Part shown: positions 50,675-63,790 of the stretch, in pieces
Layout of the letters: the number at the start of each line of letters is the position of its first letter
How positions within the stretch are numbered: position 1 is the stretch's first letter
Origin: Enorma phocaeensis
GTDB lineage: Bacteria > Actinomycetota > Coriobacteriia > Coriobacteriales > Coriobacteriaceae
Direction of reading: 5' to 3'
DNA: 64,000 nt
Assembly (NCBI RefSeq): GCF_016901575.1
Contig: NZ_JACJKQ010000010.1
Location: 1-64,000, forward strand
The notes under the pieces: generated by a model
Databases searched by the model: none
What the model was told of the DNA's origin: nothing
What the model saw: the letters and a program-made list of their open reading frames with translations, nothing else
Made by a program: the position numbers and the translations under genes

Positions 50675-50814
50675 CATTGTGAGGTCGTTTACCGATTGGT
50701 ACTCGATTAAGACAGTCAAATCAATCTCGTTCGGCTATGCTGAATGTGCTTGAAACCCTTTTCTCGTGTCATGGCTCTCCATCTTGCTGGCAGCGCAGGC
50801 GGGAAGGGGTTGTT

Positions 50815-51573
50815 ATGCCGCGGATGACACGATTGCTATCTGACTCAGGTTTCTATCACGTTGTGCTTCGAGGAAACGGGAAGCAGCTACTCTTTGAAGA
50901 CGACGCCGACCGACGGCAATTCTTGCAACTGCTGCGCGAGAAAACGGATACGGACGGCATTGCAGTTATCGCATGGTGCCTGATGAGCAACCATGTTCAC
51001 CTCTTGCTCGAAGATACGAAAGACACGTTAAGCCACATGATGCATGCGCTGGCGACGGCGTATGCGCGTCGGTTCAACGAGAAGACGGGACACGTTGGCG
51101 CTGTTTTCCAAGGCAGGTTTTTCAGCGCGCCGATCAAGTGCGATCGGCAATTGCTGCAGGCGGTGCGCTACCTTCATGAGAACCCGGTCAAGGCGGGAAT
51201 CTCGCCGGCCGCTGAGTATCCGTGGAGCAGCTATCGCGAGTACGTGCATGGCAGAGGCATAGCAGATACCAGCTTGGTGCTCGACATGGTTGGCGGCAAG
51301 GACGGCTTTTTGCGCATGAGCGAAAATGCCCGCTATGGCTCGTATTATTTCAAAACGACGAAGCTGGTTCCAGATGATGAGGCTGCCGAGGTGGCACGGC
51401 TGTTGCTCAGTGGAACAGACCCTGCAGCGCTCAAAGCATGCTCACGGCTGTACCGTGACGAGGCTCTACGCATGCTGCGCAGAGCCGGCATGACGGTCAA
51501 ACAGATTGAGCGGCTGACAGGAATCGGCCACAGTACCATCTCGAGGGCCACAAGTAGATGGATGGGCGAGTAG
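50815..51573 (+). CDS. REP-associated tyrosine transposase (RAYT, Y1-Tnp family)
   Basis: The 252-residue protein is an HUH-type single-strand nuclease: the metal-binding HVH lies at residues 60-62 (MSNHVHLLL) and the catalytic Tyr is expected at 119 (LQAVRYLHENP). A C-terminal helix-turn-helix (VKQIERLTGIGHSTISRAT) is typical of one RAYT subgroup. RAYTs mobilise or maintain REP sequences, and copies flank this gene, including an inverted pair just downstream. Start ATG 50815 follows GGGAAGGGG. The frame is intact. Its base composition is lower in GC than the neighbours, consistent with horizontal origin. Confidence 0.93.
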   Translation: MPRMTRLLSDSGFYHVVLRGNGKQLLFEDDADRRQFLQLLREKTDTDGIAVIAWCLMSNHVHLLLEDTKDTLSHMMHALATAYARRFNEKTGHVGAVFQGRFFSAPIKCDRQLLQAVRYLHENPVKAGISPAAEYPWSSYREYVHGRGIADTSLVLDMVGGKDGFLRMSENARYGSYYFKTTKLVPDDEAAEVARLLLSGTDPAALKACSRLYRDEALRMLRRAGMTVKQIERLTGIGHSTISRATSRWMGE

Positions 51574-59032: not shown

Positions 59033-59123
59033 GTCGGAGTGGCGGAATTGGCAGACGCGCTAGCTTGAGGTGCTAGTGACCACATTTCGGTCATGCGGGT
59101 TCAAGTCCCGCCTCCGACACCAT
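59033..59123 (+). tRNA. tRNA-Leu (GAG)
   Basis: The acceptor arms GTCGGAG (59033-59039) and CTCCGAC (59113-59119) pair, followed by A and an encoded CCA. The anticodon arm CTAGC-TTGAGGT-GCTAG gives anticodon GAG. The long variable arm (around GACCACATTTCGGTC) is the class II mark of tRNA-Leu, and GTTCAAGTC is the T loop. Confidence 0.96.
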
Positions 59124-59135
59124 CGAATCCTCAGA

Positions 59136-59158
59136 GCCTCTTCGGAGGCTTTTTTCTT
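59136..59158 (+). terminator. Terminator of tRNA-Leu
   Basis: AGCCTC-TTCG-GAGGCT with TTTTTCTT following is a textbook hairpin with a stable tetraloop. Confidence 0.92.
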
Positions 59159-59272
59159 ATCTAGACTGCGAAGGTCTGGGAGCGAGGAGCAGGCGTCTGC
59201 GCGCGGGCGCAGAACGGTTTTGGCCGCAGGCATCACGCTGCCGGCCCAAGCGGTCGAGGCAGGAGCCGGCGC

Positions 59273-61651
59273 ATGGATACCATGGGGCGAAACGATTCGA
59301 CGCTGCTCTCTCAGCTTGTGGAGCTTACAAGCGATGCCGTGGCTGTCTGCGACGCTTCCGGCACCGTGCTCCATGTCAATCGACAGCTCATGGCAATCTC
59401 CAATATGGCGCGCTCCGCGCTGGTGGGTGCCGATATCAAAGACCTCATCTTCAGCGAATCGTTCGAGCGCGCGGCGGACCATCGGCTTCCCTTTACACTC
59501 GACGGCTCTGACTGCACCCTCATGCTCAAGCTCGCCGACGGATCCTTCATCCCGGTGCTCGCACGCGCCATCGCCGTCTCGCCCCTGCGCCAAGACGAGC
59601 GTTCGAGCTTCATGAAGCGCCTGCTTCCCAAGGGGAGGGTCCTCGTGGTGATGCGAAGCCTCGAGGAGCAGTATGCCCACAACCGACAGATGCAGCGCGT
59701 GCTCTCGGAGCTCCAGGCAGCCAATAAGCGCCTTTCGGGAACCCTTTCGGTCATTATGTCCACCGTTGGCGCCGAAGACCTTCCTTCGCTTTTGGACAAC
59801 GTGCTGAACCGTCTGGTCGATGCCCTCGATGCCGACGGAGCGACCGTCTACTTCTCGGAGAGCGGCGGGTTCAGGCTGCGCGGCGCCTCGCATGGGCTGG
59901 AGCATGATTACGTGCCCGAGTTCATTCCCTTTGGCGCGGGCATTCCCACCTATGTGCTGCGCCAGTCGCGCTCCTGCAGGTTCAGCGTGGTGCCTGCGGG
60001 TGAAGGCCCGCGCTACGACCCAGGCTCCTTCTATGACCTGGATGCCCGAAAAAGCCATAAGCTTCGCGTCCAAGACATGCCTCCTTTCAAGACCCAGATC
60101 GATGTGCCGGTGTTTTTCGGCACCCAGGTCATGGGCGTGCTCGAGCTGGGCTGGAAGCGCTTTACCATGCCGCGCCCCTATGACGTCAATGTGCTTGAGG
60201 TGATCTGCGACTATCTCTCGATCGAGCTCGTGAGCTTGAGCACGGCGCTGCGCTCGCGCCGCGCGGCCGAGCTCACCCGTTCGCTCAATCATCTGCGCGA
60301 CACGCTGTACTCCTTCGAGGACGACCAGGTGCTTGCCTGGAACGAGTTGACCATGGAGATACGTCGCGTGCTGTCGTGCCACGTGTGTCCGGTAATCTAC
60401 GACCAACGTTCGGGTGGCTATCTGGTAGATTACGAGGGCGGCAGCCAGGTCATGCTGCCGGCAGACGTCGACGAGCTGTTCTTCTCAACCACGGCGCCCG
60501 CGGCGCGCGTCGGGACGTCGGCGCGTGAGAGGTTCTCCTCGGCGCTGGGCGGTTCGCAGTCGGTGGAGGACGAGCTCAAGACCTTGCGCCTCACGCGCGT
60601 CGACCGTACCTCGCGGGCCGGCTCGTGGCTTTATTCACACGGCCTTCCCAACCAGGGCGTGTTTTTGGACCTGCGCAAGATTTCGGAGGGTGCCGGAGAG
60701 GTCTCGGAGCTTGTCGAGGCGGAGGACGGCGCGCTCGCGCCTCTCGCCCCGAATCGTCCCGCCATGATGCTGCTGCTCCTGCGCGACGGCTCCCAAGAAC
60801 CTATCGATGACGTTGAGTTTGACTATCTGGTGCGTCTCACGCATGATTTCGAGCTCTTCGCCCAGAACCTCATGCGGCGCAAGGAGACCACTAGGATCGC
60901 TCAGACGCTCCAAAGCGGCATGCGCAGCTCGCTCGGCTCGGTTCCGGGTATTGTGAGCGACTCGCTCTATTCCTCGGCGACGCAGCAGGCGCTCGTGGGC
61001 GGCGACTTCTATACGCTCATCCGTCTTCCCGACGACCATGCCGTCATGATTTTGGGAGACGTCTCGGGCAAGGGGGTCGAGGCCGCCTCGATGTCGGCGC
61101 TCGTGAAGACGGCTCTCACGGCGTATGCATGGGAGGGTGCCTCGCCGGTGCAGATGGTGCGCTCGCTCAACACCATGCTCATGAGCTTCTCGCGCGTCGA
61201 GACCTTCGCCACCATGTTTGTGGCGAACATCGATCTGCGCAGCCGCTCGGCGCTCTATTGCTCGGCCGGACATCCGCCTACGATGCTCATCCGCCCGGCG
61301 CGCGAGGACTCCGACCCGGGTGAGGCGCGCGCAGGCGAGATCGAGCTCATGAGTACGCAGTCAGGCGTGGTCGGCGCCTTCGAGGACATGGCGTTTCGAA
61401 GCGGCTCGTTTACGTTTGAGCCGGGCGACATCCTGTTCATGTATACGGACGGCGCCATCGAGGCGCGCAACGCGGAGGGCGAGTTCTTCGGCGAGCAGCG
61501 ACTGCGCGACATCTTGCTCGAGCAGTCTGAGCGCGGCGTGGACGGGCTCTGCGCGCGTCTGCTTAGGGAACTCGACGTCTTTACCAATTCTGCGCTCGAG
61601 GACGACATCGCCATGGTCGCGCTGCGCCTGGATGGCCAGGATGCTGAATAG
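59273..61651 (+). CDS. PAS-GAF-PP2C serine phosphatase (RsbU/SpoIIE type)
   Basis: The 792-residue cytoplasmic protein has a PAS-like N-domain (about 10-120; AVAVCDASGTVLHVNRQL), a coiled coil (about 130-160), a GAF-like domain (about 165-320), an undefined middle part and a C-terminal PP2C/SpoIIE phosphatase (about 555-790) with the metal Asp residues in GGDFYTL, GDVSGKG, MYTDG and EDDIAMV. Such enzymes dephosphorylate a STAS anti-sigma antagonist in response to a signal sensed by PAS/GAF. The next gene encodes a STAS-kinase fusion, the obvious partner. ATG 59273 (AGGAG upstream) is used; 59282 is possible. No membrane spans are seen. Confidence 0.9.
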   Translation: MDTMGRNDSTLLSQLVELTSDAVAVCDASGTVLHVNRQLMAISNMARSALVGADIKDLIFSESFERAADHRLPFTLDGSDCTLMLKLADGSFIPVLARAIAVSPLRQDERSSFMKRLLPKGRVLVVMRSLEEQYAHNRQMQRVLSELQAANKRLSGTLSVIMSTVGAEDLPSLLDNVLNRLVDALDADGATVYFSESGGFRLRGASHGLEHDYVPEFIPFGAGIPTYVLRQSRSCRFSVVPAGEGPRYDPGSFYDLDARKSHKLRVQDMPPFKTQIDVPVFFGTQVMGVLELGWKRFTMPRPYDVNVLEVICDYLSIELVSLSTALRSRRAAELTRSLNHLRDTLYSFEDDQVLAWNELTMEIRRVLSCHVCPVIYDQRSGGYLVDYEGGSQVMLPADVDELFFSTTAPAARVGTSARERFSSALGGSQSVEDELKTLRLTRVDRTSRAGSWLYSHGLPNQGVFLDLRKISEGAGEVSELVEAEDGALAPLAPNRPAMMLLLLRDGSQEPIDDVEFDYLVRLTHDFELFAQNLMRRKETTRIAQTLQSGMRSSLGSVPGIVSDSLYSSATQQALVGGDFYTLIRLPDDHAVMILGDVSGKGVEAASMSALVKTALTAYAWEGASPVQMVRSLNTMLMSFSRVETFATMFVANIDLRSRSALYCSAGHPPTMLIRPAREDSDPGEARAGEIELMSTQSGVVGAFEDMAFRSGSFTFEPGDILFMYTDGAIEARNAEGEFFGEQRLRDILLEQSERGVDGLCARLLRELDVFTNSALEDDIAMVALRLDGQDAE

Positions 61652-61680
61652 CGCGCGGTTAACGAGGGAACCATAGTCGT

Positions 61681-62409
61681 ATGCGTGAATGGAACGACAT
61701 AGCAGTTATAGCCCCAAGCCGCGATATCGACATCGCGTCGGTGCCGCTGCTGCGCGAAGAGGTCGACAGCCTCATTGCCGACGGCACGCTGCGCATTCTG
61801 GTGAACTGCCGCGACGTCGGCTTTATCGATTCGACAGGGCTCGCCTTTCTGCTCACGCGCGCCCGCTGCCTCATGCAGCGCGACGGTCTGCTTTCGCTGG
61901 TGAACGCTTCGCCCGCAGTGGTGCGCTTCTTGCAGATCGCCCGTTTGCTGGACATCTTGCACGTGACGCCCGCCGACCGCCCGCCGGTGCCGTTGCTGAC
62001 CCCCGGGGAGTCTCCGGTATGGAGCAAGAGCATCTCCATTCGAGAGGGCGTCGAGAATCTGGGGAGCTATCGACACCGGTTGCTCGAGCTGCTCGAGACG
62101 CTTCCCATGGACCGCGACGCGGCCTATGACACGGCATTGGCGGCAGGGGAGGCGCTCGGCAACGCATACGACCATGCCTCGGGCGCGGGCTGCGTCATGA
62201 ATGTGCGCGCCTATCACGATCGCGTGGTCATCGAGGTGTGTGACTGCGGCGAGGGCTACGAGATCGCCGCAGACGAGGAGCCGAGCGAGTCGGAGGAGCG
62301 CGGCCGCGGCATCAGGCTCATGCGGCTGCTGGTCGACTCCGTGGAGGTGCGCCGTCGCACCGATGTCCAGGGTACCGTCGTACGCCTGGTGAAGCTGCTC
62401 GCGGCATAG
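61681..62409 (+). CDS. STAS anti-sigma antagonist fused to HATPase serine kinase (RsbV-RsbW type)
   Basis: The 242-residue protein carries both halves of a partner switch. Residues about 1-105 are a STAS domain with the phospho-acceptor region FIDSTGLAF (Ser51). Residues about 115-242 are a GHKL ATPase with N box EALGNAYDHA, G1 box DCGEGYEI and G2 box RGRGIRLMRLL, the anti-sigma-factor kinase pattern. In Bacillus these are separate proteins. The gene lies 29 bp after the phosphatase gene. No sigma factor is adjacent, so the output is unknown. Confidence 0.88.
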   Translation: MREWNDIAVIAPSRDIDIASVPLLREEVDSLIADGTLRILVNCRDVGFIDSTGLAFLLTRARCLMQRDGLLSLVNASPAVVRFLQIARLLDILHVTPADRPPVPLLTPGESPVWSKSISIREGVENLGSYRHRLLELLETLPMDRDAAYDTALAAGEALGNAYDHASGAGCVMNVRAYHDRVVIEVCDCGEGYEIAADEEPSESEERGRGIRLMRLLVDSVEVRRRTDVQGTVVRLVKLLAA

Positions 62410-62866: not shown

Positions 62867-63790
62867 ATGATCAGAATCTCCCTGTTCATCATCACCTGCT
62901 TCCTTCTGTTCCGCGCAGTGAGCGGTGCGGTGTCGCGCTATCAGGACCGTCATGGTGCAGGCGCGTCGTTCAAGCGCATGGTGCGCCAAGGGCGTCTCGA
63001 TGCCGGCGTGTATGACGATGCGGTGTGGTCCGAGGTTGGCCACGGCAGGCGTCGTCGGCTGCGGTCGAACATCTCGCGCGAACAGCAGCGGGTCATTCGC
63101 CAGGCGCGCCTCGAGATGCGCGAGGACTTTCTGGACGACAACAATCCGGGGTTCTACCAATACGTGATCATCTTTCTTGTCGCATCGGTTTTGGGGCTGG
63201 TGCTCGAGACCGTCTATACCTTCGTGACCTTCGGCATTCTGGAGAGCCGCGTGGGGCTCGTATGGGGGCCGTTCTCGCCGCTGTACGGCTTTGGCGCGGT
63301 ATTGCTCACGGCGGTGCTGTGGCCCCTGCGCAAGCGGCCTGTGTGGCAGCTCTTCTTGCTCTCGGCCGTGCTGGGCGGGCTTCTGGAGCAGATTGCCGGC
63401 TGGAGCATGGAGCAGTTTGCGCACCTGCAGTCGTGGACCTACCTCGGTCTGCCCGACCACATCACCCAATGGGTGGCGTGGCGCTTCTTGGCCATGTGGG
63501 GCCTTATCGGCGTGCTGTGGTGCCGGGTGATCATGCCCGAGATGGTCTATCGAATCGGCGAGCCCACCTCGAAGCGCCAAAAGGTCGTGGTGGGACTGCT
63601 CACGGCGTTCATCACGCTGGACATCGTGATGACGGTGGCGTGCTTCTGGCGCGCCGGCCAGCGCAGCGAGGGCGTTCCCCCGCGCGGTCCGTTCGAGGCG
63701 TACGTGGATACGCATTTCAACGATGACTTTATGGCGCGCACGTTTGAGAACATGAAGGTGGGGGAGGACCTGCCCGTCTCGAGCAAGTAG
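62867..63790 (+). CDS. CmpB-family putative ABC transporter permease
   Basis: The 307-residue membrane protein has an N-terminal hydrophobic segment (SLFIITCFLLFRAV), a basic cytoplasmic stretch (about 30-95), then about five to six spans. Conserved-looking features are YVIIFLVASVLGLVLETVY, the ESRVGLVWGPFSPLYGFGAVLLT segment and the GGLLEQIAGWSMEQF stretch, which fit the family annotated as putative ABC-transporter type IV permease. No ATPase is beside it and its substrate is unknown. ATG 62867 is preceded by AAAGGG. Strong hairpins follow the gene. Confidence 0.8.
   Translation: MIRISLFIITCFLLFRAVSGAVSRYQDRHGAGASFKRMVRQGRLDAGVYDDAVWSEVGHGRRRRLRSNISREQQRVIRQARLEMREDFLDDNNPGFYQYVIIFLVASVLGLVLETVYTFVTFGILESRVGLVWGPFSPLYGFGAVLLTAVLWPLRKRPVWQLFLLSAVLGGLLEQIAGWSMEQFAHLQSWTYLGLPDHITQWVAWRFLAMWGLIGVLWCRVIMPEMVYRIGEPTSKRQKVVVGLLTAFITLDIVMTVACFWRAGQRSEGVPPRGPFEAYVDTHFNDDFMARTFENMKVGEDLPVSSK

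What the first reader, a model, noticed from the sequence alone, without database searches (positions are those of the whole stretch)
59273..62409. Compact partner-switching module: PAS-GAF-PP2C phosphatase and a one-chain STAS-kinase
The antagonist (STAS with the phospho-Ser region) and the kinase (HATPase) are normally separate so that they can exchange partners with a sigma factor. Fusing them means the kinase could act in cis on its own STAS, and the phosphatase next door would reset it. With no sigma factor nearby, the output may be something other than transcription. I regard this as the best candidate for an undescribed system in the window.
Basis: partly seen in the sequence, partly recalled or inferred. 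Interest (0 to 1): 0.62.

Follow-up and report, generated by a model that had tools for sequence, protein, structure and literature searches.

The report
Split stress-sigma switch with fused kinase
Two neighbouring genes in a gut-type bacterium encode a sensor phosphatase and a kinase fused to its own kind of target; they look like the detached control box of a stress-response switch whose sigma factor and kinase-dead inhibitor sit elsewhere in the genome, a rearranged form of a known system rather than a new one.

Summary
At 59273-61651 lies a PAS-GAF-PP2C (SpoIIE-type) phosphatase and at 61681-62409 an intact 242-aa STAS-HATPase protein; phospho-acceptor Ser51, kinase N/G1/G2 boxes and phosphatase aspartates are conserved. 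The pair is adjacent in all 36 loci checked across Coriobacteriia; the fusion is found in up to 182 of 248 genomes, but not in family f3 (probably Eggerthellaceae).

The architecture is not undescribed: SipA of Actinoplanes missouriensis (243 aa, STAS + RsbW-like) has the same layout, and Rv1364c of M. tuberculosis carries all four domains in one chain with cis phosphorylation.

"No sigma factor nearby" is true only locally. The genome has one SigB/F/G sigma factor, preceded by a small RsbW-fold protein that keeps the STAS-binding residues but lacks the catalytic Asn, G1 and G2 boxes in 28/28 homologues; one stand-alone RsbV-like STAS; and no other RsbW-type kinase or SpoIIE-type phosphatase. 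By elimination the pair is the kinase/phosphatase half of a distributed partner switch, as M. smegmatis splits RsbW1 (anti-sigma) from RsbW2 (kinase). One genome (G128) keeps the pair without the sigma factor, so another output is not excluded. New variant of a known kind.

The parts
59033..59122 (+). tRNA-Leu (GAG), upstream neighbour; followed by a terminator-like hairpin with T-run at about 59134-59160
   Evidence: ARAGORN; sequence
59261..59265 (+). AGGAG, putative ribosome-binding site of ORF1
   Evidence: sequence; inference from position
59273..61651 (+). ORF1: PAS-GAF-PP2C (SpoIIE/RsbP-like) phosphatase, 792 aa
   Evidence: best solved relative by sequence is Rv1364c 3ke6, E=1.8e-15
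59306..59578 (+). PAS-like sensor domain (residues 12-102), below the Pfam cut-off
59774..60229 (+). GAF domain (residues 168-319)
61028..61630 (+). PP2C/SpoIIE catalytic domain (Pfam residues 586-786); aspartates D578, D596, D726, D777, D778 conserved in relatives
61681..62409 (+). ORF2: STAS-HATPase fusion, 242 aa, 29 bp downstream of ORF1
   Evidence: found in up to 182/248 genomes of the class
61693..61968 (+). STAS (RsbV/SpoIIAA-like) domain, residues 5-96
61831..61833 (+). Ser51, predicted phospho-acceptor in DSTG (aligns with RsbV Ser56)
61972..62019 (+). inter-domain linker, residues 98-113
62032..62403 (+). HATPase_c_2 (RsbW/SpoIIAB-like) kinase domain, residues 118-241
62071..62073 (+). 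Arg131, same spacing to the catalytic Glu as RsbW Arg23 (STAS contact)
62128..62130 (+). Asp150, same spacing to the catalytic Glu as RsbW Asp42 (STAS contact)
62149..62163 (+). N-box EALGN: catalytic Glu157 and Asn161
   Evidence: invariant in 32/32
62242..62256 (+). G1 box DCGEG, residues 188-192
62302..62316 (+). G2 box GRGIR, residues 208-212
62867..63790 (+). Neighbour, not part of the switch: CmpB-like putative ABC transporter protein, found near the module in several Coriobacteriales loci

Best explanation
The two genes are the signal-input half (sensor phosphatase plus switch kinase) of a partner-switching system that controls the cell's single SigB/F/G-family sigma factor in trans. 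Proposed working: the HATPase of ORF2 phosphorylates the stand-alone RsbV-like STAS protein (contig C56), and probably also its own STAS at Ser51. When the PAS-GAF sensor of ORF1 is stimulated, the PP2C domain removes these phosphates. Unphosphorylated RsbV then binds the small RsbW-fold protein encoded next to the sigma gene (contig C1), which can hold partners but no longer has a kinase site, and frees the sigma factor. The fused STAS would sit on its own kinase as a built-in competitor or first substrate that sets the threshold. SHOWN by computation: domains, intact catalytic residues in ORF1/ORF2, class-wide conservation of the pair, the genome inventory, loss of catalytic residues with retention of STAS-binding residues in the RsbW-fold protein. 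INFERRED: trans phosphorylation of RsbV, cis phosphorylation, sigma sequestration, role of the fused STAS, the signal.
For: (1) Inventory of the own genome: HATPase_c_2 hits are the fusion, the RsbW-like gene and two histidine kinases; STAS hits are only the fusion and one solo protein; the only other PP2C hit is a weakly matching 583-aa PP2C; one SigB/F/G sigma factor, the rest being RpoD- and ECF-like or partial. The same one-kinase, one-phosphatase pattern holds in most complete Coriobacteriales genomes tried. (2) The RsbW-like gene precedes the sigma gene in 28/28 loci read and lacks the N-box Asn (Y/F/L/W instead), G1 and G2 in 28/28; it is still RsbW-like by profile (B. subtilis RsbW E=7.1e-11) and by predicted fold (RsbW, UsfX, SpoIIAB best), and keeps R24/D43/E50, spaced as RsbW R23/D42/E49 that contact RsbV. 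(3) Shared distribution: fusion 182, RsbW-like 175, sigma 176, STAS 186 of 248 genomes, missing together from family f3 apart from a few weak hits. (4) In G087 a solo STAS gene sits in the operon STAS - dead RsbW - SigB. (5) Precedent: M. smegmatis RsbW1 is anti-sigma without kinase activity, RsbW2 is the RsfB kinase (PMC7693655); Rv1364c cis phosphorylation and dephosphorylation (PMC9138534); SipA domains bind each other and the STAS of a sigma factor (PMC10733313).
Against: G128 (two contigs, 98% complete) keeps the pair with intact motifs and a solo STAS but has no SigB-type sigma and no RsbW-like gene; it has several extra SpoIIE proteins, so it may be rewired. The shared absence in f3 may be a single loss, so co-occurrence is not many independent events. 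No SigB/SigF-like promoter was seen upstream of the pair. A few genomes (G078, G243, G003, G013) have additional SpoIIE-type proteins. No interaction or phosphorylation has been measured, and the relative placement of the two domains in the model could not be inspected.
Confidence: 0.62

Rival explanations
1. Self-contained cis module with a non-sigma output: the kinase phosphorylates its own STAS, ORF1 resets it, and the phospho-state of the fused STAS gates an unknown effector.
For: STAS and kinase residues are both conserved in the fusion; the 16-residue linker could allow cis docking; G128 keeps the pair without sigma or anti-sigma; partner switches with non-sigma targets exist, such as SypA/SypE.
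Against: No third gene is conserved beside the pair across the class; neighbours are CmpB in one branch and DsbD, nitroreductase and HAD genes in another. The genome otherwise lacks a kinase or phosphatase for its RsbV-SigB system.
Confidence: 0.15
2. SipA-like: the HATPase of the fusion is itself the anti-sigma factor (binding the sigma or a STAS partner), and the degenerate RsbW-like protein is an antagonist or decoy like M. smegmatis RsbW3.
For: Same architecture and length as SipA, which inhibits sigma-SsdA; RsbW3 acts as an antagonist by binding RsbW1; R131/D150/E157 are retained.
Against: The RsbW-like gene, not the fusion, is adjacent to the sigma gene in every locus read; the Coriobacteriia sigma matches regions 2-4 and no STAS domain in Pfam, unlike sigma-SsdA; anti-sigma genes commonly lie next to their sigma gene (general knowledge).
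Confidence: 0.18
3. Loose association: the pair and the SigB operon are two unrelated old systems kept in the same lineages.
For: They are not linked in any locus read; f3 may have lost both at once by genome change; G128 has one without the other.
Against: The inventory leaves each half without its necessary partner in most genomes tried; the RsbW-like gene lost its catalytic site in all 28 loci read, which is expected only if another kinase serves the solo STAS.
Confidence: 0.05

Closest known systems
SipA of Actinoplanes missouriensis (243 aa; PMC10733313)
   Same: N-terminal STAS (6-103) and C-terminal RsbW-like HATPase (158-239) in one chain of nearly the same length; its two domains were shown to bind each other.
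   Different: SipA pairs with a sigma factor that itself carries a STAS domain; in the sections read no adjacent PP2C and no kinase activity are reported; its authors found it almost only in Micromonosporaceae and knew no similar protein. The window's protein is paired with a PP2C gene and found across Coriobacteriia. Sequence relatedness to SipA was not tested here.
Rv1364c of Mycobacterium tuberculosis (PAS-PP2C-kinase-STAS)
   Same: All four functions; best solved match of ORF1 (3ke6, E=1.8e-15); the HATPase tree places a Mycobacterium PP2C-HATPase protein near the fusion (modest support).
   Different: One chain instead of two, and kinase before STAS rather than STAS before kinase; the window protein adds a GAF domain.
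Mycobacterium smegmatis SigF partner switch (RsbW1 anti-sigma, RsbW2 kinase, RsfB; PMC7693655)
   Same: Division of labour between an anti-sigma RsbW without kinase activity and a separate kinase encoded elsewhere.
   Different: RsbW2 is described as an RsbW homologue, not as a STAS fusion; the Coriobacteriia kinase is fused to a STAS and lies beside its phosphatase gene.
Bacillus subtilis RsbU/RsbP-RsbV-RsbW-SigB
   Same: Same domain types, phospho-acceptor Ser, R/D/E contact residues, SigB/F/G sigma.
   Different: RsbW there is both kinase and anti-sigma; here these roles appear separated, and STAS and kinase are fused.

Membership tests
Partner-switching systems (RsbU/V/W-SigB type) | SpoIIE-type PP2C phosphatase with intact metal-site aspartates | tested here: met
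Partner-switching systems (RsbU/V/W-SigB type) | STAS antagonist with phosphorylatable Ser/Thr in D-S-x | tested here: met
   Ser51 in 31/32, Thr in 1/32; solo STAS IDSTG
Partner-switching systems (RsbU/V/W-SigB type) | GHKL kinase with N, G1 and G2 boxes | tested here: met
   fusion 32/32
Partner-switching systems (RsbU/V/W-SigB type) | One RsbW acts as both kinase and anti-sigma factor | tested here: inconclusive
   the RsbW-like gene beside sigma lacks catalytic residues in 28/28; whether the fusion binds sigma is untested
Partner-switching systems (RsbU/V/W-SigB type) | SigB/F/G-family sigma factor present | tested here: met
   elsewhere in the genome, TIGR02980 above cut-off
Partner-switching systems (RsbU/V/W-SigB type) | Phosphorylation-dependent exchange of partners | not testable with these tools
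   needs biochemistry
SipA/sigma-SsdA system | STAS plus RsbW-like domain in one chain | tested here: met
SipA/sigma-SsdA system | Cognate sigma factor carrying a C-terminal STAS domain | tested here: not met
   the 282-aa sigma matches only sigma-70 and helix-turn-helix families in Pfam; the own genome has only two STAS matches, neither in a sigma gene
Rv1364c family | Phosphatase, kinase and STAS in a single chain in the order PP2C-kinase-STAS | tested here: not met
   two genes, STAS before kinase
M. smegmatis-type split of RsbW roles | Anti-sigma RsbW without kinase motifs plus separate RsbW-type kinase | tested here: met
   by sequence only; activity not tested

The most novel reading that the evidence does not exclude
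Across Coriobacteriia the fused STAS is a genuine cis-phosphorylated output domain with its own effector that is not a sigma factor, so that the pair runs a second pathway besides (or, in G128, instead of) SigB control.
Probability: 0.15. Interest if true: 0.68.

Novelty: new variant of a known kind. Interest (0 to 1): 0.45.

Why it matters
It suggests that a whole class of bacteria that includes common gut genera (Collinsella, Olsenella, Atopobium) runs its SigB-type response with the usual RsbW roles separated: a kinase-dead anti-sigma beside the sigma gene and a STAS-fused kinase beside the sensor phosphatase. My literature searches found no account of a SigB partner-switch pathway in Coriobacteriia. 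It also shows that the SipA-like STAS-RsbW architecture, thought to be almost confined to Micromonosporaceae, is widespread, and it gives a natural test of why a kinase would carry its own substrate-like domain.

Tried and rejected
Third conserved partner at the locus: none across the class. SigF/SigB-type promoter GTTT-N12-18-GGG upstream of ORF1: no match there; seven scattered matches in the whole window. Defence system: no PADLOC hit. Fusion as assembly or frameshift artefact: rejected, fused in homologues across the class. Fusions outside the class: most phylum hits spanning both domains are separate neighbouring genes with a stop between them, and the Planctomycetota and other hits read are separate genes; f67 has fusions that fall apart from these in the tree. 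The Greenstein 2009 paper was not held; Rv1364c statements come from papers that cite it.

Full report
Observation. The two ORFs are exactly as described. ORF1 (792 aa) is a sensor phosphatase: SpoIIE/PP2C E=1.3e-46, GAF E=4.9e-9, and a PAS-like N-terminus below the Pfam cut-off. ORF2 (242 aa) holds STAS (E=5.8e-14) and HATPase_c_2 (E=4.9e-17) in one open frame. They are 29 bp apart, between tRNA-Leu upstream and tRNA-Cys/tRNA-Gly downstream on the other strand.

Conservation. A search of 248 genomes of the class gave matches to ORF2 in 182, most of them full-length; some of the weakest may be the separate STAS protein only. In the homologues read, Ser51 is Ser in 31/32 and Thr in 1; the N, G1 and G2 motif residues are invariant in 32/32; the PP2C aspartates are conserved in all rows that cover them. 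The phosphatase gene lies beside the fusion in all 36 loci of the neighbour survey, with one intervening 333-aa ORF in G058. In the deeper branches the phosphatase is longer, with HAMP and multiple GAF domains instead of PAS-GAF: the sensor part changes, the output pair stays. The class is Coriobacteriia: named hits include Collinsella, Olsenella, Atopobium, Thermophilibacter and Anaerosomatales.

Structure. An AlphaFold2 model of ORF2 (mean pLDDT 86.7) matches solved RsbW, UsfX and SpoIIAB structures and, separately, RsbV and SpoIIAA; the sequence profile assigns the former to the C-terminal and the latter to the N-terminal half. The relative placement of the two domains could not be inspected.

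The rest of the circuit. The own genome has one SigB/F/G-family sigma factor (TIGR02980, 288 bits against a cut-off of 234). Just upstream is a 126-aa protein with weak HATPase_c_2 similarity. Its profile finds B. subtilis RsbW (E=7.1e-11), and its confident model (pLDDT 93.8) is closest to RsbW, UsfX and SpoIIAB. In 28/28 loci it lacks the Mg/ATP Asn of the N-box (Y, F, L or W instead) and recognisable G1 and G2 boxes, so it should not be a kinase. It keeps R24, D43 and E50 invariant, with the spacing of RsbW Arg23, Asp42 and Glu49, which contact RsbV (PMC7340262). The fusion keeps the same trio, R131/D150/E157. So both should be able to bind a STAS, and only the fusion should phosphorylate it.

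The genome has one stand-alone STAS protein with IDSTG. Its only other HATPase_c_2 hits are histidine kinases, and its other PP2C hit is a weak match to a 583-aa PP2C of another type. Complete relatives mostly show the same single kinase and single SpoIIE-type phosphatase. Fusion, RsbW-like, sigma and STAS genes have nearly the same distribution (182, 175, 176 and 186 of 248); read off the listed rows by eye, every sigma-positive genome also has a fusion hit. In G087 a solo STAS gene sits directly in a STAS - RsbW-like - sigma gene row, which ties a solo STAS to the anti-sigma.

Mechanism. I conclude that the window's pair supplies the phosphorylation and dephosphorylation steps for a distributed SigB-type partner switch. 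This is inference from elimination, retained residues and precedent; nothing was measured. The precedent is close: in M. smegmatis RsbW1 is the anti-SigF without kinase activity and RsbW2 is the only kinase for RsfB (PMC7693655). The fused STAS is most simply a built-in competitor or first substrate.

Counter-evidence. G128 retains the pair and a solo STAS with intact motifs but lacks the sigma factor and RsbW-like gene; it also has several additional SpoIIE proteins, at least one fused to HATPase_c_2. Shared absence in f3 may be one event. No sigma-type promoter links the operons.

Evolution. Outside the class, most phylum matches spanning both domains are two adjacent genes, STAS then HATPase, with a stop between them, so the fusion probably arose by joining such a pair. 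Another family, f67, also has fused proteins. A tree of the short HATPase domain puts the RsbW-like proteins in one well-supported group away from the fusions, and the fusions near a Mycobacterium PP2C-HATPase protein; deep support is modest, and the fusion label needed two changes, so a single origin is not shown.

Comparison and novelty. SipA of Actinoplanes missouriensis has the same architecture and length (PMC10733313); Rv1364c has all four domains in one chain and modifies its own STAS (PMC9138534). The window's system differs from both by arrangement and by the separated kinase-dead anti-sigma. Searches of the held library with partner-switching, RsbV/RsbW, anti-sigma or SigB terms, several of them combined with Coriobacteriia or Collinsella, turned up no description of such a pathway in this class, but only the top rows were read and most subscription papers are not held. 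Verdict: a real, well-conserved new variant of a known kind.

Noticed in passing
L065:1501-1878 and L065:1826-2671 (own genome contig C1, about 172045-173215): RsbW-fold protein without kinase motifs directly upstream of (and overlapping) the only SigB/F/G sigma gene; motif loss in all 28 homologues read across the class.
   Followed up: yes
L141, L142 (genome G128): A same-order genome (family f2) keeps the phosphatase-fusion pair and solo STAS but has no SigB-type sigma or RsbW-like gene, and has extra SpoIIE proteins.
   Followed up: partly
L041:1462-1776 and 1833-2546 (contig C56): The stand-alone RsbV-like STAS gene lies directly upstream of a TatA/B-like translocase gene.
   Followed up: no
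L202:4780-5562, L203:4837-5658 (genomes G519, G492, family f67): STAS-HATPase fusions outside the class, with other STAS genes nearby and, in L203, a 1291-aa PP2C protein; possibly an independent fusion.
   Followed up: partly
L195, L204, L205, L206 (family f41): Separate STAS-HATPase gene pairs whose HATPase keeps the N-box Asn but seems to lack a clear G1 box: possible intermediate loss of kinase function.
   Followed up: no
50737-51573: IS200-like transposase (Y1_Tnp) with C-terminal helix-turn-helix matches.
   Followed up: no
59060-60406 (-) and 61255-62217 (-): Long antisense ORFs over ORF1 and ORF2; probably shadows of the G+C-rich coding strand.
   Followed up: no
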